A stretch of 64,000 bases of DNA from Crambe crambe (Eukaryota; Porifera; Demospongiae; Poecilosclerida; Crambeidae). Each line of letters starts with the position of its first letter. The stretch's first letter is position 1. Of the stretch, positions 2,831 through 60,021 are shown piece by piece. The notes below the pieces were generated by a model, which worked only from the letters and a program-made list of their open reading frames with translations, searched no databases and had not been told where the DNA came from. Location: the NCBI GenBank assembly GCA_963924555.1, contig OZ004586.1:7336501-7400500 (forward strand). The letters run 5' to 3'. Both the position numbers and the translations under genes were made by a program.

Positions 2831-4645
2831 AGGGTCTGGGTCTCTCTAGTCAGGTCCCTTAGCAAAAAAATCGCGACAGAGTGGAACAGAACAAAGCATG
2901 AAAATTTGCACAGAGATTCTATAGTATGTAAGTAATGATGTTGGAAGGGGTGCCACAAGAGAACTGCTCTCTCAACCTAAATATGCAGGTTGACATGCCT
3001 GCAACTTTTAGCATTCCTATCAACGATATCCGCGAATATTTAAATATTCGCGCATAATACATTTTAATGTGCGAAATTTAAAAACGCGAAAATTTAAAAC
3101 AAACTTTGAGCCAAGTTTCACATTCTGCACTGCATTGGCAAAGACCAGTCCTGCTTCCCTGCATCTACACTTCCTGGAGCAAAGTGGTACAGCTTTACTT
3201 TATAGCCACACTTCAACAATTCTCGGCTGGCCTTTGCTGCTTCAGGTAGAAGTGTTCACACTGGTTCCCTGACCGCCTTCTTCTTTTGCCAACCATATTC
3301 ATCAGGTAATGGAGCATTTTGCTGACTCCGAAGACTGGTAGCCCAAATACTTGATTGATAAGTGCTCTGTTGCAATGTTGCAACAACACAGCCTGAAATA
3401 CCAAAAACAAAAAAATTACAGCATGCAGATATAGTTATAATTATATAGAGCTTGGTCTTTACCTGTAGGGGGAATGTTTTCCATTGTTTTCCATTTCTTG
3501 GAGAAAAGTTCTTGCCTCATTTCTTTACACTGGTGAGTACACTGCTTTTATCATAATATAGTACACAGGTAAAACGTTCCAGAATTGCAAATGATGGTGA
3601 GGTTACTGTCATTGGCTGAAAAGGTTGGTCGACAATGCTGACAAAAGCTGCTGTAGCTTCAGGATATGCCTTCCAAGCATCCCATGCTGACTTCTTACCC
3701 TTTCCTAGAAACTGCGATGTTGTGTCGCATCCAGTAAATGCATGGAAAAACAGTATTTCTGAGGACCTAGAGCTTGGCGGATGGCATTGATGTAATATCA
3801 CTATCTACAGTGCGCACCAGTAGATTTCTAGCACCACTCCTCACAGCACTGAAGAGATGAAGCGCGATTCTTGTATCTGCTTCTTCATGATCACATGGTT
3901 GAGTTGTTTGATCTACATTCTGACACAAAGTATGGCTGATTATAGATGAACCTGTGTTATTATAGAGATCCATAATTATTAATATGCACATTAGATTGCC
4001 ATACATACCTGAGGTGACATGGACGATTTTGTCTGTTGGAAATTCACAAGAAGATATCTCATGTTCTTGTTTGTTTGAGGAATCGATCTAAAAGAGATAG
4101 AGGCCAAGGCCACTTTGCTTTATTTTCAATAAGTTCCCCTGGTGTCATATCACCACTGATTTGAATATTCACAGGAATAGCCCCAATCTCACTGAACTTT
4201 TTAACTACTTCCAGAAAGTTACTGTATACCAGAGGACCATTGTTCTGAAGACTATCCAGTGGACATCTCAAGTCATCTCCTGCTCCAGCTTTACCACAGA
4301 TGATACACTTGCTCCAATCCATGCTCTCAAGGGTATATGGCAACCAAGAATCTTGATGCAAGAAAAAAACCCAAAATTAATTTTCGCGATGCTTACATTT
4401 CGCGCACTTTTGTATTATAATCTCCATAGCGCAAAAATTAAATATTTCGCGGATAGCGCAACTTTGGGATGAAACAACAAAACGGTTTCTATTTTGGAAG
4501 GAAAAAGTGTCCTACAATGGCACCCCTTCTGTATTTATTTAATATGCCATGAAGAAACATCATGCCAATTTTCATGCTTTGTTCCACTCTGTCACAAAAC
4601 AGCACTAAATTTGGGCTAAGGGACCTGACTACTCTGTGTGTGAGG
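2830..4645 (-). mobile_element. DNA transposon with long imperfect terminal inverted repeats in PDZ-LIM intron
   Basis: The left end (about 2830-2955) and right end (about 4513-4645) are inverted copies of each other. Shared words include CTAAGGGACCTGACTA, CATGCTTTGTTC, TTCCACTCTGTC and GGCACCCCTTC. Just inside, both ends carry AT-rich segments full of CGCGAA/TTCGCG. The interior holds the - strand protein remnant listed separately. The element sits in the intron between the PDZ exon and the first linker exon. The third PDZ copy (7175-7493) lacks it, and unit 5 holds an internally deleted version at the same place. The exact ends and target duplication were not resolved. Confidence 0.65.
3213..4361 (-). 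pseudogene. transposon protein remnant (HEEADTR / TGCDTTS family)
   Basis: Broken - strand frames read in order. 4361-4059 has CIICGKAG and DDLRCPLDSLQ; 4006-3767 has HEEADTRIALHLFSAV; 3801-3517 has FFHAFTGCDTTSQFLGKGKK; 3410-3213 gives a C-terminal piece with AVLLQHCNRA. The combination of an EADTR segment, an AFTGCDTTS segment and an LLQH C-terminus recurs in uncharacterised repeat-encoded proteins of marine invertebrates. I recognise it as a family but cannot name its enzymatic class. Frames are interrupted, so it is not functional as it stands. It is the only coding content of the surrounding inverted-repeat element. Confidence 0.6.
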
Positions 4646-5117
4646 ATACTTCACCCAAAATATGCTAAAGTGAAATTTTTATACACAACCAAACCTTTTT
4701 ATGATAGGGAAGTACCCAGTTATGCTGCTGACTCAGCACCTATTGAGTCCACTGACCATGGAGTGGGCGAGAGGCCACAACCACCTCCTGTTCCCACGTC
4801 ATCTCACTCCAGCACCGTGACTGTCTCACCTGCAGCCCACAAAACCACTGTAGTCGTCCCTAAGAAACGTAAGTACCTTACATGCAGTGCTTAAAACAGC
4901 AGTCAGGACATGCACTCAAGCTACTGTTATTATGCATACACTTAAATACGATATAAACTGATCGTACTAACTCCTTATTATTTGTAACTTTGATGTATTT
5001 TCTGTTTCAATATGTAGCTCCTTCCCCTGAGGTGAAGTCCCAGCCTTCAGCCTTGGTGTAAGTGTATCTTTAGTAGCAGTTAATAGAACGGCCAAGCTTC
5101 TTGCATACATTAATTAA

Positions 5118-8130: not shown

Positions 8131-11100
8131 TCAATTGTTTTGTATTTTGTAGTATAGTTGATCACATTCCAGAGCTTTCTGTAAAAGAGGGTGCATATTT
8201 TGGAGTGCCTGCATCTCCAGCAGGTCAGGACACGACTGGTACCATGTTGGCTCAATGGGAGAGAATGATTCAGGTTGCCACCCATAGCTAGGATGAGAGT
8301 GATAGTGATAAGTTAGTAAGAATAGTGGATCGTGTTGTTGTTGTAGTAGTTGGTGGCGATGGGGGAAGTGCAGAGTTCTGAGATCACAGAGGGATTGGGA
8401 TCTCCTTAGGTTGTGTCGTGGAACAGCAGGATCTCTTCGCAGAGCACGGGCCATGCAGTCACGAAAGGGTGGATTACTTTTAATATCATGAGTAAAATAC
8501 CTACCACTAGCAAAGTTTAAATTCTTCATGGAATGACGGAGAGAGTCATTTAGACTCATGATGTAATTGCAACAGAAATGAGGCATTGCAAATAGTATGT
8601 CATCAATGTTGTGTATTCCTACACTTATTGACTTGATGGAGTTCATCTCTGCTATGCAGCTCAAGTATTGAAAAGACCTCAACACTTCCAGTGGGTGGAT
8701 TTTTGAACTTGAAGAGGTTAATGGTATCAATTCCAGGGCAACATGCTCAATGCTCCCAGCATTAGTACATACTCTATATCCAAAGTTAGTCTTTAATGTT
8801 GAAATAGTGGAGGAAGATAGTGCTGCCTGAAGCACTGGATAAAGCTCATAAGAGGTGAACAGTTCTGACCTTTTATATGGTAGTGGCTTCACAACTTCAC
8901 CAAATAAAGCAGGATAACATTGAAGTTGTAATTCTGTGAGAGTAGAACTAGTGGATATGATTTTGCATAATTCCTGCACACCTTTCTGAGTAGGAGTACG
9001 GCACACAAGACTGGATTTTTCCAAGTTTGTAATATGTTGAATGGATTGGTAAAGTAAATAGTCATCTTCACATGATTCTAAGAATGTTAAGTCGATACTT
9101 GTCAATCCTGGTGAACTTTTTGAAATCCAATCAGAAAGAACTGGTACTAATGGAGAAGGAATGCCATTTAGAGTGAGAGAGTTGATATGAAATCTGGGAA
9201 AGTACTTTGTGAGTGATGTAAATTTGGATGATACATGCACACTGTGGTATACATGTATACATAAGTATTTAATAGTCCATAATGTTCCACCATTTGTTTT
9301 CTTTGTGTGCTCAGACAAACTATGCACCAACATCTCTAGAGATGTATATATGTACACTTCCTGGCACTGAATAGGAACATGGACTAGACAATATCCAAAA
9401 ACATACACATCCAAGGGGTTGGACAAGCGTAAAGAAGTTTTGATGTCTAGTTTAAGTTCAGAAATGTCTCGAATTTCATATAAACAATGCAGTAGGTAAG
9501 GATCAGATAGGTATTGGGTCAGGATTCCTTGAAAGAATTTTTCATTGTAGCCCACAATACCACATAAGAACTGACCAAAGACTCTGAGGTGTGGTATCAG
9601 TCGTCCATATTGGGTTACTATTTTAGAAGAAGCTTCATCTACTAAGTCAGAATGACATGAAACATACCAAGCAGCAAGAAACTCTTGGATGCTGAGATGG
9701 AGGAAGGAGTAGGAGGTTGCTGCACCCTCACACACATACATCTCTTTGACTGCATTCATGAGACCTAAATGCTGGAAACCCTCTCCAACATCACTATCAG
9801 TAAACACTAGCTGCACATCTTCCTTAAACAGACCACTGTAAGCTAGTTGACTAACTCTCTTAAGGTCCATGGAAACACTCTCTGGTAGATCTTTAAGACT
9901 ACTGGGTACTTTGGAATGCTTGTCCCATTTCCCACTAGAAATCATGTGCCTCCTGATCAGAACTAGAGTAAGGGTGGTGTAGAGCTGTGTCATGGTTTTG
10001 GGCATCAGCTCTCTGCTCTTTCTGATATCTTTGTACACTTGTGCAATAATGGCACAATTGACAGGAATGTACATCAGTGAGTTAATGACAGGGTTAGAAA
10101 ATATAAAATCCTTGAAATGAGCAAGAACCTTGGGTTCTGATTTGAAAGCTATTTCTGCAAACCTTACTTTGCACTTATCAGTGAAACCAAGTACCTCTAC
10201 ATGCCTGAAACCCTGAGGAAAGTAACTCTTAAGAGCAGAAGGTCGACTAGTAACAAGACGAGTAGCTTTAGGTAAGCAAGAACCACTAATTAATCGCATT
10301 ATCAACCTGTTCTCGTCATGAACCACAGAAGGCGGCATCTCATCGAATCCATCCAGTATGAATAGGACACCCTCCCCCTCACATTTCAACACCTCATTCA
10401 CCACTTCCCTACGAAATCGCTCATCATCATGATATATCAGGTCCTCCAAGGAAGTAGCATTCTGAACCCTTCTTTCACGAAGCTTTAGCAGAAGTACCAT
10501 TTTATAATGTTTCAATGAAGTCAAGGTGTCCCGCTTCCTGCACAACTCCCTGGCCAAAGTGCTCTTACCAATGCCAGGGGGTCCCTCCACCAACACAAAC
10601 CTTGTCCCTGAAGGTACAATGTCGTCCAATTCCAAAGGACTCTTCGCTCCTCTAATTTCATCCACACCACCATCCAGGGATGCTTTTAAGAATGTGTCGT
10701 CTTCATGAATGGTCCTACCTTTATCCACCAAAGCAAGGCTAATGAACTCACTACAAGGAGCAATGGAGAGTTTGTCATCACGAGCTACAGACTCATTTTC
10801 ATAGTATGGTTTGAGATATTGATTTGTATATCGTACCAGCATAGGCTCATTTCTTTTCTTATTTCCCTTCAAAGATTTACTGGAAATCTTCATGGAGTGT
10901 TTTTTGCGGTATTTTCTTTTGCATTTTTTTGTAGTGGTCACATGATCACTATCAAAGGAGTCAGAACTAGTGGCACTACTTGATGTAGATGATGGACTAG
11001 ATGATGAGACTACATATTGTCTTTTCTTACTTTTCTTGTGTTTGTCCAGTACCTTGTGTTTGCGTGTTCTTTTGTGCTGCCTTGTGGAGGCAGAGGGTTT

Positions 11101-11182
11101 CTTACGTTTAGCTGGTGGAGTGTTGGAGGCAGAGGCAGACTGGTCAGAATGATCACTGTCACTGGACAAGGATGAGTCATTC
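8131..11182 (-). CDS. NLR-1 main exon: basic linker, NACHT, LRRs, conserved tail
   Basis: This is the large last exon of a cytosolic NLR-type sensor. The exon starts at 11,182 after acceptor CATTACAG and needs two bases from the previous exon. The mini-exon at 12,727-12,769 supplies them. The order is as follows. First comes a Ser/Lys/Arg-rich linker of about 115 residues (SSLSSDSDHSDQ, KRKKPS, KHKKSKKRQ). The NACHT follows, with Walker A GPPGIGKST (about 10,558-10,584), Walker B VLFILDGFDE (about 10,340-10,370) and sensor-like RLVTSRPS. Next are helical NACHT-associated regions with LGLMNAVKEMYVCEG and SFLHLSIQEFLAAWYVS, then several RNase-inhibitor-type LRRs (KGVQELCKIISTSSTLTELQL). The tail has LRRSQSLCDLRTLHF and YQSCPDLLEMQALQNMHPLL. 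The frame is uninterrupted. Family knowledge says NACHT hydrolyses NTP to drive oligomerisation; the ligand is unknown. Confidence 0.9.
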
Positions 11183-12726: not shown

Positions 12727-12769
12727 AGTGCAGTGTTGTTGGGAGGATCTGCACCAACTTCAACACAAC
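12727..12769 (-). CDS. NLR-1 mini-exon joining effector to NACHT exon
   Basis: A 43 nt exon between acceptor GTGTAATAG and donor GTAAGTAAC encodes xCVEVGADPPNNTAL. It enters in phase 1 and leaves in phase 2, exactly what the Death exons (13,595-14,411) and the NACHT exon need. Homologues lie at 33,362-33,404, 43,053-43,095 and 59,503-59,536. Confidence 0.7.
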
Positions 12770-12950
12770 CTATTACACAAAGAAAGAAGTACCATGATGA
12801 AAATAATTTACTTTTTGATCACCCACAAAATGTAAGTCACATATGTTCCTTCCCACCACCAGAATTCATTCACTTTATGTACCTTTCCAAGAGTCTCAAA
12901 ATAGTCACTATATAATATTGTGTGGACTTAATCCTGTTGAAGTGACTGCT

Positions 12951-13230
12951 ATGGACACTTTGCTCAAGTGTACAAGACAATTGGAAACTTTGTGTGGAGA
13001 CAGAGACATTGCACACTAAGAAAGTTTTCTCAAGAAAGATGTCATTGACACAAATTCAAGACTGTCACATGTTTGTATGTTAGTAAGTGAAGCTCAATCT
13101 TCACAATTACCACAAGCTATTCCACAGCAATATGAAGAAGTAGCTATGAGGACATTGTGAATCTGGATAAAGAGTATGAGACTCTACATCCATACAGTGA
13201 CTGAATCCAGGTGGTGGTAAAGGACAAAGG
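12951..13230 (+). pseudogene. inverted, broken CARD exon inside NLR-1
   Basis: On the + strand, opposite to NLR-1, this stretch matches the NLR-5 CARD exon base for base over long runs: ACAAGACAATTGGAAACT, GGAGACAGAGACATT, CCACAGCAATATGAAGAAGTA, GGATAAAGAGTATGAGACTC. It has an early stop (after GDRDIAH), internal deletions and another stop near the end, so it cannot code. 12,790-12,895 carries a direct-orientation copy of the same exon's 3' edge, so this is an inverted duplication with loss and not a simple flip. The Death exons now provide the effector domain of this locus. Confidence 0.75.
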
Positions 13231-13594
13231 TCATCTGTTATAAGACTAACTTAGGATCCCACATAACAATACCAATGTCCCTATAAGGTGCTCTAGAGAT
13301 GTTGGGGAGTGATGATATCAAGTGCCTGTAAAGACACTTTAAGTGGACATGTCCACTATAATAGTGAATAGCATATCATGTACACACAAATATGTTCTAC
13401 CATATATAGAAAATGGAGTGCTGCACTCAAGGTCAAAAGTGACAACTTATTCTAGGACATAATTAATTAATGTTGGACCAATGCTACATCAACCTCAGTG
13501 TGCATGGTCTAAGTAATTTACACAGAGGACCCTTGGGGTGTGTGAATGGCACAAAGACCTACTCCTCAGTGTACTACCTAGTGCATATACTTAC

Positions 13595-14411
13595 TTCTTT
13601 CATTGGTGGTTCTTTGTATAAGCTCACAGACTTTTTCAGCAGTGTATGTATCTCCTCCTGCTAAACAAACCTTCAAAAGGTTTCCATATGTTGCATCTGC
13701 TTTGATCTTTCCCTTCCAAACAAGTAAAACCTCTATCCTGAAGGATCATAGTTGAATATTCATAAAGTAATCCCACACCACCCATAACAAATAAACAAAC
13801 AAACAGACAGACGAACAAACAAACAAACAAACAAACAAACACCACCAACAACACAAAAACTCCTTTGGAGTCATTAGCTTTGTTAATTCTCCTCCTTGGT
13901 ATTCCAAGGTTTTATTTATTGGGAAAGTATCACTGATCCAGGGATGCATTTAGGATTCTACTTATGGGGCTGTTTGGCATTTCGAGGGGGGGGGGCAAAG
14001 CTAATGTGCCTATTCGTATGGAATACCTTTATCAATAGGTTACTAAATCTCAAGGGGGGAAGTCCTCCCGGTCCCCCTAAATACATATTGTAACACATTC
14101 AGGCTACATAACATGCTCTTAACACATTTTATCTTTTTGAGAAGTTACAGTGTTTGGGGACCTATCTATATCAGATGAAATTCTACTAACCTCTCAATGA
14201 TAGGTTGGGTAGGATCACTTCTGCCCACTTTCTTGATGTCTGAAATGTCAGTTCGTGTAAGATGCAATTGAACTGCCAACTTTGTCTCCCATTCAGTTAT
14301 ATGTTTGGCTATCTCAGGAAGATCACGATCAGAGTCCACTATCTCCTTCAACTTCCACTGCTTGGAAGGATCAATGAGCTTGTTGACATATTTTTTCAAC
14401 TCATCAGCCAT
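13595..14411 (-). CDS. NLR-1 Death domain exons (two exons)
   Basis: Exon 1 (14,411-14,191) starts at ATG in AAAATGG context and ends at AG/GTTAGT in phase 2. Exon 2 (13,737-13,595) starts after CCTTCAG and ends at A/GTAAGT in phase 1. Joined, they give a Death fold. The first half has EWETKLAVQLHLTRTDISDI; the second half has IEVLLVWKGKIKADATYGNL then a LLKVCLAGG-TAEKVCELI end. Such domains recruit adaptors or kinases by homotypic contact. The exit phase fits the mini-exon at 12,727-12,769, so I assign it to NLR-1. Other full NLRs here have CARD-like exons in this position. A separate small Death gene is less likely but possible. Confidence 0.7.
13789..13840. repeat. AAAC microsatellite
   Basis: This is an (AAAC)n tract with a few AGAC/GAAC variants, inside the intron between Death exon 2 and exon 1. 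Cys/Val/Phe-rich - strand frames across it are artefacts. Confidence 0.85.
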
Positions 14412-15150
14412 TTTCTGAAAGTTAATGCACACAGTTACAGGGCCGGAGCCATAGGTCAGGTTTTAAGGTTTCAACCTGACCACTTTTTGTCCCAAAAATT
14501 AATGTTAGCTACTTTACTTAACTTTGCTTCAGCAAACTACAAGGCCCTGAGGAAGATTTTGAAAGTAAACCAATATCTTGGTGTGGTAGAGATAGTGGGA
14601 ATACGGTCAGACTGAATGGGCTTATCAAATTGGTGTGGTAGGTTGTGTAGGTAAATCACATGGCCCTTGCTAGGAAATGCCCTCTCCCTCCCTCCCTCCT
14701 GCTTCTTTAGATTTAGTGTTTAGCCATCAGATTGTTAGTTATAGCTAGCTATCTAGCTAGACGGCTATTGACAGTGATCCCTGAGATAGTCCAGACACTT
14801 CCACCAATGGCAACTTCTATCCTTAGCCTGGGGGAGGGGGTGTCTTGGCATGCAGAGAAAGGTGTTGAGTTTTTGCTATGATTAATATTGGTGTGTTTTT
14901 GTTCAATCACATACAATGGCTTTCTACAGTACTTATAATTTGCATTTTACTAGTGCACTTGCCAACCTGATAAAGACACTGTGGGGAGATAACCCAGAGG
15001 GATCCTGGTGTAAATACTCTGGTAATATGGTCAGACTTATGTTAGACTTGTGTATGGTCATTGCAACTAGGCATGTTTCGGCCTTTATAATTGTAACTCT
15101 CAGAACAGAAGTGAAGTCACTGACTATTAAAGAATTGCCACATGCACACA

Positions 15151-20100: not shown

Positions 20101-20424
20101 CATTAATGAAGTGTACAACTCTATAGTGAAGCAGATGAGTATTCAATGTAGCCATTATAAACTCTTCTTTTTTATATGAGTAGCTATTTTTGTTGCAGAC
20201 TTACAATGTATTCAATAGTCTAGTGCATGTCGTCATCACGTTATAAGAAGCTTAAGTTTTGAAAAGAAGATGGTCACGCATACGCAAGATAAATTAACCA
20301 CCAATCAAATAATGGAATTTTTATTTGATGAGTGAAGAGTTCAAAAGAGCTACATGAATTAATTAGCATGAAAGGATGTTCAGTATTGGAATAGTTTAAC
20401 AAAAGAGACACTTTTAGTGTTTTT

Positions 20425-22015
20425 GTAATATAGTTGATCACATCTCAGAGCATTCTGTAAAAGAGGGTGCATGTTTTGGAGTGCCTGCATCTCCAGCAGG
20501 TCAGGACATGACTGGTACAATGTTGGCTCAATGGGATCAAATACACTACGCTGGCCAGTATTTTTTAGAGGGATATGTCGCCACCCATATGAGGATAGTG
20601 GTCTGGGAGAGTCATGTTGCTGTAGTAGTTGGTGGCGATGGGGGAAGTGCAGAGTTCTGAGATCACAGAGGGATTGGGATCTCCTTAGGTTGTGTCACGG
20701 AACAGCAGGATCTCTTCGCAGAGCACGGGCCATGCAGTCACGAAAGGGTGGATAACTTTTAATATCATGAGTAAAATACCTACTACTAGTAAAGTTTAAA
20801 TTCTCCATGGAATGACAGAGAGAGTCATTTAGACTCATGATGAAATTGCAACAGAAGTGAGGCATTGCTAATAGTATGTTATCAATGTGATGTATTTCTA
20901 CTCCTATTGACTTGATGGAGTTCTTCTCTGCTATGCAGCTCAAGTATTGGAAAGACCTCAATACTTCCAGTGGGTGAATTTTACGTAAGGGGATTGATGG
21001 CATCGATCCCAGGGTAACATGCTCAATGCTCCCAGCATTAGTACATACTCTATATCCAAAGTTAGTCCCTAATGTTGAAATAGTGGAGGAAGATAGTGCT
21101 GCCTAAAGTATTGGATAAAGCTCATAAGAGGTGAACAGTTCTGACCTTTTATATGGTAGTGGATCACCCAGACGTGTTGGCCCTGCAACTTCACTAAGTA
21201 AAACATGAAGTACTAATTCTGTGAGAGTAGAACTAGTGGATATGATTTTGCATAATTCCTGCATACCTTTCTGAGTACACAAGACTGAATTCTTCCAAGT
21301 TTGTAATATGTTGAATGGATTGGAAAAGTAAATAGTCATCTTCACATGATTCAGAGAATTCTAAGGTAATACTTGTCAATCCTGGTAAACTTTTTGAAAT
21401 CCAATCACAAAGAACTGGTACTAATGGAGAAGAAATTCTATTTAGAGTGAGAGAGTTGATATGAAATCTGGGAAAGTACTTTGTGAGTGATGTAAGTTTG
21501 GATGATACATGCACACTGTGATGTACATCTATACGTAAGTCCTTAATAGTCCCTAATGTTCCACCATTTGTTTTCTTTGTGTGATCAGACAAACTATGCA
21601 CCAACATCTCTAGAGATGTAAGTATGTACACTAACTGGCACTGAATAGGAACATGGACTAGACAATATCCAAAAACATACACATCCAAGGGGGTGGACAA
21701 GTATATATCAGCATTTTTGATATCTAGTGAATGTTTAGAGATGTCATATAAACAATGCACTAAGTAAGAAGAACCAAGGTTTTTCAGGATTCCTTGAAAG
21801 AATTTTTCATTGTAGCCCACAATACCGCACAAGAACTGACCAAAGACTCCGAGGCATGGTATCAAGAAAGATTGGGATACTATTTTAGAAGAAGCTTCAT
21901 CTACTAAATCGTGATATGAAACATACAACACAGCAAGAAACTCTTGGATGCTGAGATGGAGGAAGGAGTAGGAGGTTGCTGCACCCTCACACACATACAT
22001 CTCTTTGACTGCATT
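20425..22015 (-). pseudogene. NLR-2, truncated pseudogene (C-terminal NACHT-associated region, LRRs, tail)
   Basis: This - strand copy matches the C-terminal half of the other NLRs, beginning abruptly at 22,015 inside MNAVKEMYVCEG. It lacks the NACHT core, linker and effector exons. It carries SFLHLSIQEFLAVLYVS, the LRR segment and the DPAVP tail. Lesions include a 5 nt deletion near 21,275 (frameshift before the KGMQELCKII repeat), a CAG to TAG stop near 21,104 and a CGA to TGA stop near 20,697 in the tail. The sequence upstream of 22,015 is unrelated to NLR. It could still be transcribed. Confidence 0.85.
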
Positions 22016-22260
22016 CCTGTGTATGCAGCTGCCACAACCACTGCAATATCTTAGCCCAATAAGTCAAAGTACAAATGACTTTCACCAACTGCTTCGCTCG
22101 CTCGCCGATTGAATATGTTACACGAACATACCCTAGTGTCAAGCAACCTGCAATCCGCTTACGCATGAAATAGCTACTCAGCTAATAACTTTCATGCAAT
22201 GATTTTCATTGAACTTGAAGTAGAAACGAGTATTATGAAACCCAGAGAACCAGAAAAAAA
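22016..22260. other. no gene seen
   Basis: This is the junction stretch between the NLR-2 breakpoint and the arginine-rich remnant. It has no supported feature apart from a TTCGCTCGCTCGCC run. Confidence 0.4.
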
Positions 22261-33629: not shown

Positions 33630-33999
33630 CTGGTAGGGGCTGGTGGGAAGAAAGTTTGGGAGCCACTTTTGACACACCAGGACCTGTGTTTCCCTGATAC
33701 TCTGTACCAAGAATCTCAATTATGTCTTTGTATCTTGTGTTGTTCTGGTGCATATAGTTGACCACTACACGGTAATTGCGAGGATGGAGTTCAACTCGAT
33801 CTCTGATTGCAGTCACAAGTGTGTTAGATTTCTCAGCAGGAGAGAGTCTTGACGTTGGACTGCTGATGACATCATAATCATCTTTTGTGAGGAGTCCCTG
33901 CTCATGAAGAAACTGTGCTATATCTCGGTCAGACTTGAGAGCAATCTCCAGCTTCCTGCTGCACTTGACAATAGTGGAATACTCCTTGGACTCTGCCAT
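33630..33999 (-). CDS. NLR-3 CARD-like effector exon
   Basis: ATG at 33,999 (AGTGGAAATGG) gives MAESKEYSTIVKCSRKLEIA; the frame runs to donor CCAG/GTAGGT at 33,630 in phase 1. Conserved death-fold positions are seen in IAQFLHEQGLLTKDDYDVI, the LSPAEKSNTLVTAIRDRVEL stretch and YKDIIEILGTEYQ, which resembles a CARD of six helices. Such domains bind partner CARDs. The upstream in-frame TTG (MVVE reading) is not needed as a start. The NLR-4 exon differs by only a few bases. Confidence 0.75.
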
Positions 34000-34244
34000 T
34001 TCCACTACCAACAGTCAGCAATGGCTCTAATTGCAAATGATCAGTAAAGAAAGAGAAAAGTGTGATAGCAAGGGAAGGAGTGGGTGGAAACTAACAGTAC
34101 AGCAGAAAATTTTTGTGGGGTAAAACTTTTGTGTTCTGAAAGAATAATACAAAAAAAAAAAATCAAGGTGCTTCACACTTTTTCTATAAACCATGAAAAA
34201 ATTTACTCCACGAAAATTTCATGCTATATAGAACAGTCATACTG

Positions 34245-43320: not shown

Positions 43321-43690
43321 CTGGTAGGGGCTGGTGGGAAGAAAGTTTGGGAGCCACTTTTGACACACCAGGACCTGTGTTTCCCTGATACTCTGTACCA
43401 AGAATCTCGATTATGTCTTTGTATCTTGTGTTGTTCTGGTGCATATAGTTGACCACTACATGGTAATTGCGAGGATGGAGTTCAACTCGATCTCTGATTG
43501 CAGTCACAAGTGTGTTAGATTTCTCAGCAGGAGAGAGTCTTGACGTTGGACTGCTGATGACATCATAATCATCTTTTGTGAGGAGTCCCTGCTTGTGAAG
43601 AAACTGTGCTATATCTCTGTCCGACTTGAGAGCAATCTCCAGCTTCCTGCTGCACTTGACAATAGTGGAATATTCCTTGGACTCTGCCAT
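43321..43690 (-). CDS. NLR-4 CARD-like effector exon
   Basis: ATG at 43,690, donor CCAG/GTAGGT after 43,321, phase 1. The protein differs from the NLR-3 effector at very few positions (QFLHKQGLL for QFLHEQGLL; RNYHVVVNY for RNYRVVVNY). NLR-3 and NLR-4 would therefore recruit the same partner while carrying different LRRs. Confidence 0.75.
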
Positions 43691-43699
43691 TTCCACTAC

Positions 43700-45680
43700 C
43701 AACAGTCAGCAATGGCTCTAATTGCAAATGATCAGTAAAGAAAGAGAAAAGTGTGATAGCAAGGGAAGGAGTGGGTGGAAACTAACAGTACAGCAGAAAA
43801 TTTTTGTGGGGTAAAACTTTTGTGTTCTGAAAGAATAATACAAAAAAAAAAAAAATCAAGGTGCTTCACACTTTTTCTATAAAACCATGAAAACATTTAC
43901 CCCACGAAATTTCATGCTACATAGAACAGTCATACTGTAATCGTATAAATTTTCGATGGGTTTTATTTTCATTTTTTTTCGTAGTCAATCAGAATCCTCG
44001 AAAATAATAAATGAAGTCTTAGTACTATGATGTCATATATGACGACTATGCGCATGCGTGTGCGATGCGATATTGATAGCAGCTGGAAAAAAACCTGGAG
44101 CAGATAGTCCGTGAGATGAAAGTATCATGCTTCATTACCGGGACTCTCTTCTACAACGAAGCGTCTCGCCTTCTGTAGCAGTCTAAATTTTAGTCTGGTA
44201 TACTAGCCCAGCTTTTTGGGGACTATCTATGCACATGCGTTATTTTCCATGTGCTTGCTACAAAAATTAGACCTGCAGAAATTTTTTATTATAGGAACAG
44301 CTCCGGAAATCACGAAATTTTTAACCTCTGAAAATTTATACGATTACGATAATGAGATATTGATACAGTAACTATCCTATCTACTTCCAGGCCTCACTAT
44401 TCTATGGAACGGAATGGAACGAAACAGAACAGAACAGAACATAACGGAACAAACGGTTCCAGGACCCTATTTCATGGAACGGAATTTTTACTGCGCATGC
44501 ATGTACAGTAAGAGTTTAACAGTTATCTTCAGACCCTAGGATGGTGAAAGTGTGTAATGCACTGTCATAGCTCGGATCTTCCAATTTCCCACAATATATT
44601 AATGACTGGTATTTTTATAGTACTGTAGTTTGTAGCATTAGAGAAAGGGTTTATTAAAAGCTGTTTCTGCTGCAACAGAGGAAGGTTGGATGAGCGCTGC
44701 TCTACAGCCACTAGATCATCAAGTTGATATGTCATGCATGCAAAATGTGGAAATTAACTGTCACCTCCTTGTGTGCTAAGAATTCCAAGAATCTTCCCTA
44801 TTACTCCTCCAGTACACCTATATTATTCTGCCAGCATAATATGCACATGCAGGAGCTACTAATCAGGGGCACATGTGCGCATATGCAGTGAAAATTCCGT
44901 TCTGTGAAATAGTGTTCTGTTCCATAGAATTGTGAGGCCCTCTACTTCCATGTTACCATAAAGGCTGTGTCAGTTCAGACTACTAGCCATCCAAAAATAG
45001 GTGTAGAATTAGTCTAGTACCCACTGGAAATAGCAGCTGGTACAAGGAAATGTTTGCACTTAAGAAACATGTCCCCTTCTGTGAGGGGTGTGGTCTGATT
45101 TTGACTGGATTTGACTACACTCCCTCCATATTTCCCTTGCACATCTCTTCTACTCAAAAGGAAACTGGTCTGCTCAAATCTCGCTAGTCCCGCCCACTTT
45201 TTTTTTTTCGGGACTATTAACCTCACCCAGAGGCCAGATCAGACTAGACTAGTCTACTACTTAGTAGATACATCAAGTTACAACAGACCTAGATCTATAA
45301 ACCCACCTTTATCACTGAAGGAACGAACGAAAGTGGAAAGAAGTCCTAGTCTAGTCTGGCATAGCACCGCCCACACGTTATTTCAATATTACTTTATGCT
45401 TTAATAGAGAAGATTTGTGGGTGGGGCCGGCATGCAGCATCCGATTCTCTTCTCTTCCCTTTCCCCTCGTCTAGCGGTCCTTTAAGCCTTGCTTGGGGTA
45501 AGTCTCTGATACATGCATGAAGTTTGACCTATCTCCTGTGTCCTTCCAGCAACTCACAAATCTCCTCCCCTCGTATGGGACTCACCTGAGTCCTCCTTTA
45601 CTAACATCATGTTAGTTACCCATGCTCCATCCCTTCCCCCTCCCCTTAAATGTCATCTCCATCTTCTTTATCACCATTAG
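43700..45680. other. NLR-4 upstream region (duplicate of 34,000-35,985)
   Basis: No gene. It contains the duplicated inverted-repeat elements at about 43,938-44,355 and 44,390-44,939, and the leader block at 45,420-45,520. Confidence 0.55.
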
Positions 45681-50104: not shown

Positions 50105-50955
50105 ATTCAGTTAGGGTCTGGGTCTCTCTAGTCAGGTCCCTTAGCAAAAAAATCGTGACAGAGTGGAACAAAGCATGAAAATTTGCACAGAGATTCTATA
50201 GTATGTAAGTAATGATATTGGAAGGGGTGCCACAAGAGAACTGCTCTCTCAACCTAAATATGCAGGTTGACATGCCTGCAACTTTTAGCATTCAATATCC
50301 GCGAATATTTAAATATTTGCGCACAATACATTTTAATGTGCGAAATTTTAAAAAACGCGAAAATTTAAAACAAACTTTGAGTCAAGTTTCACATTCTGCA
50401 CTGCATTGGCAAAGACCAGTCCTGCTTCCCTGCATCTACACTTCCTGGAGCAAAGTGGTACAGCTTTACTTTATAGCCACACTTCAACAATTCTCGGCTG
50501 GCCTTTGCTGCTTCAGGTAGAAGTGTTCACACTGGTTCCCTGACCGCCTTCTTCTTTTGCCAACCATATTCATCAGGTAATGGAGCATTTTGCTGACTCC
50601 GAAGACTGGTAGCCCAAATACTTGATTCTGTTGCAATGTTGCAACAACACAGCCTGAAATACCAAAAACAAAAAAATTACAGCATGCAGATATAGTTGTA
50701 ATTATATAGAGCTTGGTCTTTACCTGTGTAGGGGGAATGTTTTCCATTGTTTTCCATTTCTTGGAGAAAAGTTCTTGCCTCATTTTTTTGCACTGGTGAG
50801 TACACTGCTTTTATCATATAGTACACAGGTAAAACGTTATTCAATATGCCATGAAGAAACATCATGCCAATTTTCATGCTTTGTTCCACTCTGTCACAAA
50901 ACAGCACTAAATTTGGGCTAAGGGACCTGACTACTCTGTGTGTGAGGATACTTTA
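50105..50955. mobile_element. internally deleted copy of the copy A intron transposon
   Basis: It has both ends of the 2830-4645 element (CAGTTAGGGTCTGGGTCTCTC ... GGCTAAGGGACCTGACTAC), but about 970 bp equal to 3,577-4,548 are missing. The missing part covers most of the protein remnant; the join is at about 50,839. It is a typical non-autonomous deletion derivative, or a deletion after duplication. Confidence 0.7.
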
Positions 50956-51429
50956 CCCAAAATATGCTAAAGTGAAATTTTTATACACAACCAAACCTTT
51001 TTATGATAGGGAAGTACCCAGTTATGCTGCTGACTCAGCACCTATTGAGTCCACTGACCATGGAGTGGGCGAGAGGCCACAACCACCTCCTGTTCCCACG
51101 CCATCTCACTCCAGCACCATGACTGTCTCACCTGCAGCCCACAAGACTACTGTAGTCGTCCCTAAGAAACGTAAGTACCTTACATGCAGTGCTTAAAACA
51201 GCAGTCAGGACAGAAGTGTTTATGAACTCAAGCTGTTATTATGCATACACTTAAATACGATATAAACTGATTTTACTAACTCCTTATTATTTGTAACTTT
51301 GATGTATTTTCTGTTTCAATATGTAGCTCCTTCCCCTGAGGTGAAGTCCCAGCCTTCAGCCTTGGTGTAAGTTTATCTTTAGTAGCAGTTAATAGAACAG
51401 CCAAGCTTCTTGCATACATTAATTAACCA

Positions 51430-51453: not shown

Positions 51454-53441
51454 GTGTGTGCAGACCAGAGTCAGGCTTGGATTCAGGTGGAAGCTCCACT
51501 CAGCAATCTCCTGCTTTCAAGAGGATCACCATCGAGAATCGACCAACTGTTTTTAGGTAGAGTTGTATATACTAATAGTACAGAAAAGAGTCAATGAATC
51601 ATGGCCTGAGAGTTTGCTTAACGATTTATTAGTACAGAGTGGATAACTATAGCCTGAGGATGATCCTTTTCCCTTTGTAGTTCGTCACCTGCTGCTCCTG
51701 CATCTCCGCCCACTCAGCAGATGCAGAATATTGTCATTGACGATGGGAGTGTGAGGAAAACCTCTCAAAGACCTCGGCGTGAGTTTTCCTTTCTTTTTAT
51801 CCCCTCCTAATATGGGGACACTTCCCTTTTTTCCCCTGGTCTCAACATTCCATTGTTTATCAGCGTTATTGATAAAGGAGTTGATGGGCCTCTGATTCAG
51901 CTTGAGAAACGAGAGATAGGGTTATTGATGCAGTTCTTTGTTCCATTATGTACACAGTATTGCATCACATGAGCTGGCCTGTGATACTAAACAACACACC
52001 AAAGTCAAGAACTCTAACTTGTCCATTACTTCTATCATGCTATAAATAAAAACTCTATCAATTGTTACAAAGTAAATTGATTATGTCCCTTCAGCTCCTC
52101 CCAATGTTCCTTCCACTGTTACCAAGACAACAGTGGTGGTGCCCAAGAAAGGGTCCCCCATAGCAAAGCCACCTCCCCCCACCACTTCTGGAGGCACCAC
52201 TCAAGTGGGTGGCACATGTAAGTGACAAGTGAAGACGACCTTTTTAGATCTATATATGGATGAAGTCCCAATAGGGTGTCTTATTCAGTGGAATGAAACA
52301 CAATTAGCTGCAATTTTAGACTTGTAAAGCTATCCCAGTTAGTGTGCTTTATTTGGAGATAATCAAAAATTATTTTTATAGCTCCAAGTGGAGGCAAAGT
52401 GGTGGATCGTCAAGGTGTGTGTGAAGCCTGCCAACAACCCATAAGGTAACATTTGTTTCCTCCCTCTAATCCTTCATCCTCTCTCATCTCTTCCCCTCCT
52501 CAATCTCATCTCCCTCCTCTTCATTCGGATCGTCTTGGTTCCTTAATTACCTTGATCCTTCACTATCTCCTTCCTGTGATCTTCTCCAGGGGTCCTTTTG
52601 CTAGTGCCCTGGGTAAGGTGTGGCACCCTGAACACTTTGTGTGCCAGGACTGCCAGAAAACTCTTCAAAACACAACTTTCGTCTTTGAGGAGGATAAGAT
52701 ATTCTGTGAGGAATCTACCAGAAGAACTTTGCCCAGACCTGCCACTCTTGCAATAAACCCATTCTAGGGGTGAGTCTATCCAGAATAGTTGGGTTCTCTC
52801 CAGTGAAACTGATCAGAGTGGTGCTTGAATACCACATTAAAGGATTTCGATATTCTTATGGCTATAAAAATACATCGTTTTAACCACATGAAAGAAAAAT
52901 GGGCCCATCAGAGTGGTGTTGCACCTCTCTAACACCTTTTGGGGAGAAGCCTGCTATTTCACCGATAATTATCAGCTCAACCGTAATTATGTTTTGGTTG
53001 AAACATTCACCAAAGGTCAAAGTACATACTTATTTCTTACTGGGCATGCTCAGTATGTATACAAATAATTGTAATGCAGCCCAGCATCAGTGCTATGGGT
53101 CTCAACTGGCATCAGGAACACTTTTCCTGCTCACGCTGTATGGCCGACCTCTCCAAAGGTAGGAATGAAAGAGAAAATTGATGTTTAAAACAGCTGACCT
53201 TTGACCTCAGGGTCAGGGTTCAACATGGAGAACAACATGTTGTTTTGTGGAGATTGTTATGGGGCAGTGTATGGGGCCACCTGCTTTGGCTGCAGCCAGC
53301 GAATTGGAGGAGACCAGTTGTGGGTGGAGGCCCTGGACCACCAGTGGCACCCTGCATGTTTTGTTTGTGATGTGAGTCGCTTACCTAGCAATTTATATTT
53401 AGTCTAACAACTAGAATTCTCAACCAAATTTCTACTTAACT

Positions 53442-59536: not shown

Positions 59537-59656
59537 CTATTACATAAAGAAAGAATGTCACTAGTAAAAGTACCATAGATCATAATAATTATGTTTATTG
59601 GATCACCCTCAAGCTACATGCTCCTTCACCACCACCTGGATTCAGTATGGACGTAC

Positions 59657-59975
59657 CTTTTCCAAGAGTCTCATACTCTTTATCCAGTATCTTCACAATG
59701 TCCTCATACTTCTTCATATTGCTGTGGAAGTACTTGACTAGCTTGTGGTAGTTGTCAGGGTTGAGCTCCACTTTCTCCTTGATAGCAGTCGCCAACACAC
59801 CAGCTTTATCAACACGCGACAGTCTTGAGCTTGGGTCAATGACATCATCATAGTCGCCTTGCTTAAGAAAACCTTCCTTATGGAGATAGTGTGTAATGTC
59901 TCTGTCTCCACGCAAAGCAGTTTCCAGTTGTCTTGTACAATTGATCAAAGTGCTGGATTCCCTGGACTCTTCCAT
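59657..59975 (-). CDS. NLR-5 CARD-like effector exon
   Basis: ATG at 59,975 (CTGCTATGG). MEESRESSTLINCTRQLETA is followed by ITHYLHKEGFLKQGDYDDVI, LSRVDKAGVLATAIKEKVEL and YEDIVKILDKEYETL, ending at donor AAAG/GTACGT in phase 1. It is clearly homologous to the NLR-3/4 CARD but about half diverged, and it is the parent type of the inverted relic at 12,951-13,230. Confidence 0.75.
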
Positions 59976-60021
59976 AGCAGTAACTTTTCTCTGAGACTAT
60001 AGTAAGTTCATAGGATAATTA

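What the first reader, a model, noticed from the sequence alone, without database searches (positions are those of the whole stretch)
12727..14411. Effector-domain swap: NLR-1 uses a Death domain while its CARD exon is an inverted relic
NLR-3, -4 and -5 have CARD-like first exons. In NLR-1 that exon exists only as a broken + strand copy at 12,951-13,230, and a two-exon Death domain precedes the mini-exon with exactly matching phases (2, then 1). The relic directly shows how one NLR lineage could change its signalling partner while keeping its sensor.
Basis: partly seen in the sequence, partly recalled or inferred. Interest (0 to 1): 0.78.

Follow-up and report, generated by a model that had tools for sequence, protein, structure and literature searches.

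The report
Death-for-CARD swap in sponge NLR genes
In a sponge, a group of neighbouring immune-receptor genes appears to have swapped one signalling end (a CARD-like domain) for another (a Death-like domain) in a single DNA rearrangement whose scar, a backwards broken CARD exon, is still there and marks the genes that carry the new end.

Summary
NLR-1 is preceded on the minus strand by two Death-like exons and a mini-exon with GT/AG sites and matching phases; a broken copy of an NLR-5-type CARD-like exon lies inverted between them. Two points were missed. The 3' end of the original CARD exon is still in place in sense orientation (12,839-12,898), so the recipient was a CARD-type gene. And NLR-1 is not unique: 11 Death front-ends in one array carry the same relic and stub; a pattern across the stub/relic junction returned 9 places genome-wide, all in these loci. 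Two relatives have Death exons, no convincing relic and apparently their own mini-exons. So one rearrangement most likely joined a Death front-end to a CARD gene, and copying spread it. Effector and receptor body are uncoupled: 10 relic-bearing bodies do not form one clade (AU p = 4e-38); NLR-4 (CARD-B) is 97-100% like NLR-3 down to the mini-exon, but from there 94% like a Death gene. Chromosome lengths point to Crambe crambe, chromosome 6. No transcript was available.

The parts
14191..14411 (-). Death-like domain exon 1 of NLR-1, ATG at 14,411, ends in phase 2
13595..13737 (-). Death-like domain exon 2, ends in phase 1
13222..13243 (-). Possible remnant of the Death gene's own mini-exon start and acceptor, at the break
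   Evidence: about 17 bp match read by eye, weak by itself
12956..13224 (+). Inverted, broken CARD-A exon relic
   Evidence: (blastn E 8e-41 to 59,622-59,952)
12899..12955 (+). Start and 5' flank of the CARD-A exon carried in the inverted piece
   Evidence: alignment to the 5' flank of the CARD-A gene at C9:7270766
12839..12898 (-). Stub: 3' end of the recipient's CARD-A exon, its donor site and start of the intron, in sense orientation
12727..12769 (-). Mini-exon of the recipient gene, phase 1 to 2
8131..11182 (-). Main NLR-1 exon (Ser/Lys-rich linker, NACHT, C-terminal part)
   Evidence: PF05729 E 5.6e-21
59657..59978 (-). CARD-A exon of NLR-5, intact homologue of the relic
43385..43702 (-). 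CARD-B exon of NLR-4
33694..34011 (-). CARD-B exon of NLR-3

Best explanation
NLR-1 belongs to an array of NACHT receptors in which the effector front-end (one CARD-like exon, or two Death-like exons, ending in phase 1) is a module that plugs into a mini-exon plus NACHT body. In one ancestor, a rearrangement cut a Death-NLR within intron 2 or at the start of its own mini-exon, joined it to an inverted copy of a CARD-A 5' flank and exon, and joined that to the last bases of the CARD-A exon of a recipient gene. Death exon 2 could then splice to the recipient's mini-exon. This founder was copied, and recombination or gene conversion with an edge near the mini-exon combined the Death front-end with different bodies. 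Shown: the anatomy, the shared breakpoints, Death relatives without a convincing relic, and the discordance of effector and body. Inferred: the mechanism (replication template switching or staggered inversion, since the end of the CARD exon is present twice), splicing in vivo, and a change of downstream partner.
For: Splice sites and phases fit. Stub colinear with NLR-5 over 12,898-11,817 at 78%. Stub/relic junction in 11 of 11 Death+relic loci by alignment; by pattern 9 places, all in these loci, reversed-pattern control 0 (the tool's counts are lower bounds). Death loci 7869263 and 8377918 show apparently Death-specific mini-exons with the same phases and no relic above chance level in the first, a borderline one in the second. 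Death exons open and without indels over the compared 351 bp in 11 of 11 relic loci, while the relics have deletions and mostly stops. AU test rejects one clade for 10 relic-bearing bodies. NLR-4 (CARD-B) NACHT is 98.8% identical to Death genes 7407318 and 7060990 but 88.7% to CARD-B NLR-3. NLR-3 and NLR-4 are 97-100% identical from the CARD exon down to the mini-exon, then fall to 48-95% in 100-column windows, whereas NLR-4 and Death gene 7060990 align without break from mini-exon to main exon at 93.7% over 1,183 columns.
Against: No transcript. Death Pfam score of NLR-1 is below the cut-off. Pooled pN/pS of the Death exons is 0.61, weak constraint. Of 10 relic-bearing Death genes with a body, 2 (7165011, 7407318) have no recognisable mini-exon and 7165011 has a broken acceptor; 2 more (7144235, 7908497) have a broken NACHT. 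The supposed native Death gene 7869263 has GC instead of GT at its exon 2 donor. A 52-bp, 69% inverted CARD-A match in the intron of 8377918 (31.1 bits; 60 shuffles: 95th percentile 28.3, maximum 35.4) leaves open an old relic there. The Death mini-exon remnant at the break is a short match. The Death label is only mildly clustered on the NACHT tree (23 of 500 shuffles as low).
Confidence: 0.78

Rival explanations
1. The Death exons are a separate short gene or dead relic, and NLR-1 uses no effector exon or an undetected one.
For: No RNA; Pfam score below cut-off for NLR-1; in 2 of 10 genes the mini-exon is not recognisable.
Against: The same order with open Death exons recurs at 11 loci; phases fit; no minus-strand CARD hit at E 0.001 lies between NLR-1 and the NLR-3 CARD exon; the main-exon acceptor is in frame in 4 of 4 further Death genes checked.
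Confidence: 0.1
2. The discordance comes from gene conversion that homogenises receptor bodies across the array while each gene keeps its old front-end; the Death front-end did not move after the founder event.
For: Identical or nearly identical NACHT regions in genes with different front-ends; gene conversion and exon shuffling are discussed for zebrafish NLRs (passages of PMC4852459).
Against: The shared tract of NLR-4 and 7060990 runs from the mini-exon through the intron to NACHT, so conversion limited to NACHT does not suffice there; two Death loci also carry a CARD-B stub, which points to joining of front-ends.
Confidence: 0.3
3. Stacked front-ends: the Death and CARD exons first stood in tandem before one body, and a micro-inversion of the CARD promoter and exon switched the gene to Death.
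For: NACHT 7195486 has a CARD-C exon and then a relic-bearing Death front-end upstream; 7511365 has two CARD-B exons, each with a mini-exon match.
Against: The Death gene's own mini-exon seems cut and the CARD 5' flank is trimmed to some tens of bases, so extra deletion is needed; no intact Death-plus-CARD-A stack was seen among the loci examined.
Confidence: 0.3

Closest known systems
Zebrafish NLR-B30.2 family (PMC4852459, passages seen)
   Same: Large NLR family with a NACHT-bearing main exon, exon shuffling of N-terminal modules between NACHT groups, gene conversion
   Different: There N-terminal peptide repeats shuffle; here CARD-like and Death-like effector exons are exchanged and the junction scar is preserved and shared
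Dysidea avara NLRC/NLRD (PMC12909245, abstract and passages seen)
   Same: Sponge NACHT-LRR genes with either CARD or Death N-termini
   Different: There CARD and Death categories form separate NACHT clusters; here they interleave, with up to 98.8% NACHT identity between a CARD and a Death gene. That paper's pipeline gave C. crambe 1 NLRC; here CARD-like exons stand before many NACHT exons
Amphimedon queenslandica NLRs (Yuen et al., seen only as cited in PMC12909245)
   Same: 15 NLRC reported within a clade that also holds NLRX and NLRD genes
   Different: Paper not seen; whether it describes a relic of a swap is unknown to me

Membership tests
Animal NLR | NACHT NTPase domain | tested here: met
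   PF05729 E 5.6e-21 in NLR-1
Animal NLR | C-terminal leucine-rich repeats | tested here: inconclusive
   No LRR model among the hits at E up to 1; only NLRC4_HD2 below cut-off
Animal NLR | N-terminal death-fold effector domain in the same transcript | not testable with these tools
   Exons and phases fit; no RNA
Death domain (PF00531) | Match to the profile over the gathering score | tested here: not met
   18.0 of 22.6 bits for NLR-1; 6 of 6 relatives hit, best E 9.5e-05; FADD death domain is the best PDB profile hit but only at E 0.019. Called Death-like
CARD (PF00619) | Match to the profile | tested here: inconclusive
   13 of 28 paralogues, best E 6.6e-4, against 18 of 28 for FumaraseC_C; no CARD hit for the window exons; no PDB death-fold hit; six-helix model; fold search unavailable

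The most novel reading that the evidence does not exclude
The array works as a cassette system: interchangeable death-fold front-ends (Death, CARD-A, CARD-B, CARD-C) that plug in phase 1 into a mini-exon are repeatedly exchanged and sometimes stacked before one NACHT body, so one sensor could be wired to several signalling outputs through alternative first exons, and outputs turn over faster than sensors.
Probability: 0.2. Interest if true: 0.85.

Novelty: new variant of a known kind. Interest (0 to 1): 0.64.

Why it matters
How immune receptors change their signalling partner is mostly inferred from domain lists. Here the breakpoints of a likely CARD-to-Death exchange are still readable, are shared by descendants and act as a tag to follow the new front-end through the array. 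The order of events becomes testable in other individuals and species, and NACHT trees and effector categories need not agree in sponges.

Tried and rejected
Chance for the relic: rejected, blastn E 8e-41. NLR-1 as a single case: rejected. A CARD exon elsewhere for NLR-1: no minus-strand hit at E 0.001 before that of NLR-3. PDB searches with single proteins: the Death protein gave response regulators and a designed protein (E 0.078 and weaker); the NLR-5 exon gave mostly designed TPR proteins (E down to 1.8e-05, no stretch of that match passing on its own). Labels of the NACHT rows were set by hand from the nearest upstream same-strand exon hit; B includes B-like exons of about 50% identity to the CARD-A query. 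Seven of 40 family rows had no effector found (upstream stretch fetched for 6 of the 7) and were left out of the four-state count. Of 37 inner forks 14 are well supported and 16 open. All six labels together are hardly more clustered than shuffles (49 of 200 as low). The forks of the mini-exon tree that unite NLR-4 with 7060990 (90/99) and NLR-3 with a CARD-A gene (83/96) are not starred. The pattern lies in the relic end and does not span the Death side; that junction was compared by alignment only (2 of 11 carry a 14-bp deletion).

Full report
What is there. The window is C9:7,336,501-7,400,500 of a 143.14 Mb genome in 119 contigs. Contig lengths (C1 9.57, C3 9.68, C9 8.84, C10 8.73, C16 7.06, C18 6.57, C19 6.54 Mb; C11 7.66, C14 7.33 Mb) match chromosomes of the Crambe crambe assembly, span 143.20 Mb in 124 scaffolds; C8 (9.17) is nearest to one of 9.18 (passages of PMC12166358). 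C9 would be chromosome 6. NLR-1 has Death-like exons 14,191-14,411 and 13,595-13,737, mini-exon 12,727-12,769 and a main exon from 11,182, all minus, with GT/AG sites and phases 2, 1, 2. The main exon has a NACHT domain.

Domain identity. The spliced Death protein of NLR-1 scores 18.0 bits against Pfam Death, under the 22.6 cut-off. All 6 of 6 spliced relatives given hit Death, best E 9.5e-05; a profile of them finds FADD death domains first in the PDB, at E 0.019 only. The CARD-like exons match Pfam CARD in 13 of 28 paralogues (best E 6.6e-4), but FumaraseC_C in 18 of 28 (best 0.0014); the window's own exons have no CARD hit, and the profile finds no death fold in the PDB. AlphaFold predicts six helices, pLDDT 79.9. 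The names Death and CARD are used here in the sense of Death-like and CARD-like.

The relic and the missed stub. The + strand relic (12,956-13,224) is an inverted copy of the NLR-5 CARD-A exon with several deletions. On the minus strand, NLR-1 12,898-11,817 is colinear with NLR-5 59,673-58,535 at 78%; its first bases are the last bases of the CARD-A exon with its donor. The end of the CARD exon is therefore present twice: once in place and sense, once inverted. The inverted piece also carries a stretch of CARD-A 5' flank, best seen against the CARD-A gene at 7270766.

One event, many copies. The same order (Death exon 1, exon 2, inverted relic, stub) occurs at 11 Death loci of C9. Ten have a body: NACHT 7060990, 7091799, 7110297, 7144235, 7165011, 7219939, 7249706, NLR-1 = 7346443, 7407318 and 7908497. 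The eleventh is a Death front-end at 7202765-7204857. All 11 share the stub/relic junction by alignment. A 29-base pattern across it, up to 3 mismatches allowed, returned 9 places, all in these loci and without mismatch, reversed-pattern control 0; the other two carry small deletions. A twelfth relic end, near 7314191-7314459, has no Death hit in the shortened listing.

Where the Death end came from. Two relatives, 7869263 (NACHT 91% to NLR-1) and 8377918 (65%), have Death exons followed by what I read as different mini-exons of the same phases. The exon 2 donor of 7869263 is GC, so that gene may be impaired. In 7869263 CARD-A matches are at chance level; in 8377918 one 52-bp inverted match (31.1 bits) lies between the 95th percentile (28.3) and the maximum (35.4) of 60 shuffles, so an old relic is not excluded. 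Death intron 2 of NLR-1 matches that of 7869263 weakly to near its mini-exon (E 1e-07), and a further short match suggests that the break lay at the mini-exon start. The stub makes CARD-A to Death the direction of the change in the recipient.

Uncoupling of effector and body. A tree of 42 NACHT rows (40 family, 2 outgroup) interleaves Death (12), CARD-B (12), CARD-A (7) and CARD-C (2) genes; 7 rows had no effector found. The Death label needs 8 changes, at least 6 forced by well-supported branches, with 23 of 500 shuffles as low. Holding the 10 relic-bearing genes together is rejected, AU p 4.4e-38. NLR-4 (CARD-B) is 98.8% identical over 906 bp to Death genes 7407318 and 7060990, but 88.7% to NLR-3 (CARD-B). 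From CARD exon to mini-exon NLR-3 and NLR-4 are 97-100% identical in 100-column windows and then drop to 48-95%; from mini-exon to main exon NLR-4 and 7060990 align in one piece at 93.7% over 1,183 columns. The tree of the mini-exon plus 330 bp of intron (21 rows) shows the same companions with moderate support. At this gene the edge between the two halves therefore lies at the mini-exon. Genes 7165011 and 7407318 also carry a CARD-B 3' stub after the relic.

Are the copies functional? Death exons are open in 11 of 11 loci; one acceptor (7165011) is broken. Pooled pN/pS is 0.61, weak evidence for constraint. Among the 10 with a body, 8 have the mini-exon core with at most 1 mismatch and 2 have none. 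Two have a broken NACHT. The main-exon acceptor stands in the right phase in 4 of 4 checked: 7060990, 7091799, 7110297, 7249706. Together with NLR-1 and 7219939, whose main-exon start was not read, six may be complete; the introns of 7110297, 7249706 and 7219939 were read in part only.

Mechanism and literature. A cut Death gene, an inverted CARD piece and a duplicated CARD end fit replication template switching or a staggered inversion with deletion; this is inference. Exon shuffling of N-terminal modules is known from zebrafish NLRs (PMC4852459, passages). In the sponge Dysidea avara, CARD and Death NLRs form separate NACHT clusters (PMC12909245, abstract and passages); here they do not. Searches for sponge NLRs, for NLR exon shuffling, for Crambe crambe with NLR, and for inverted exons with NLR listed no report that I recognised as this relic (listings and abstract starts only).

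Noticed in passing
G000:C9:7195486-7208742 (L021, L033, L068): One NACHT body has a CARD-C exon and mini-exon, then a relic-bearing Death front-end, then a truncated NLR main exon and a CARD exon with a mini-exon match further upstream: stacked front-ends.
   Followed up: partly
G000:C9:7511365-7517183 (L056, L062): Two CARD-B exons, each with a mini-exon match, stand before one NACHT body that itself has one stop.
   Followed up: no
window 14,412-14,425: A CAG|AAAATG context just before the Death start codon looks like an acceptor, so an upstream non-coding exon is possible.
   Followed up: no
window 20,380-22,063: NLR-2 appears to be a degenerate NLR copy in several frames.
   Followed up: no
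window 4,553-4,894 and 50,855-51,196: Nearly identical 113-aa open frames, probably parts of a repeated element; no Pfam hit at E 0.01.
   Followed up: partly
window 52,450-52,767: LIM domain exon (PF00412, E 2.3e-12).
   Followed up: partly
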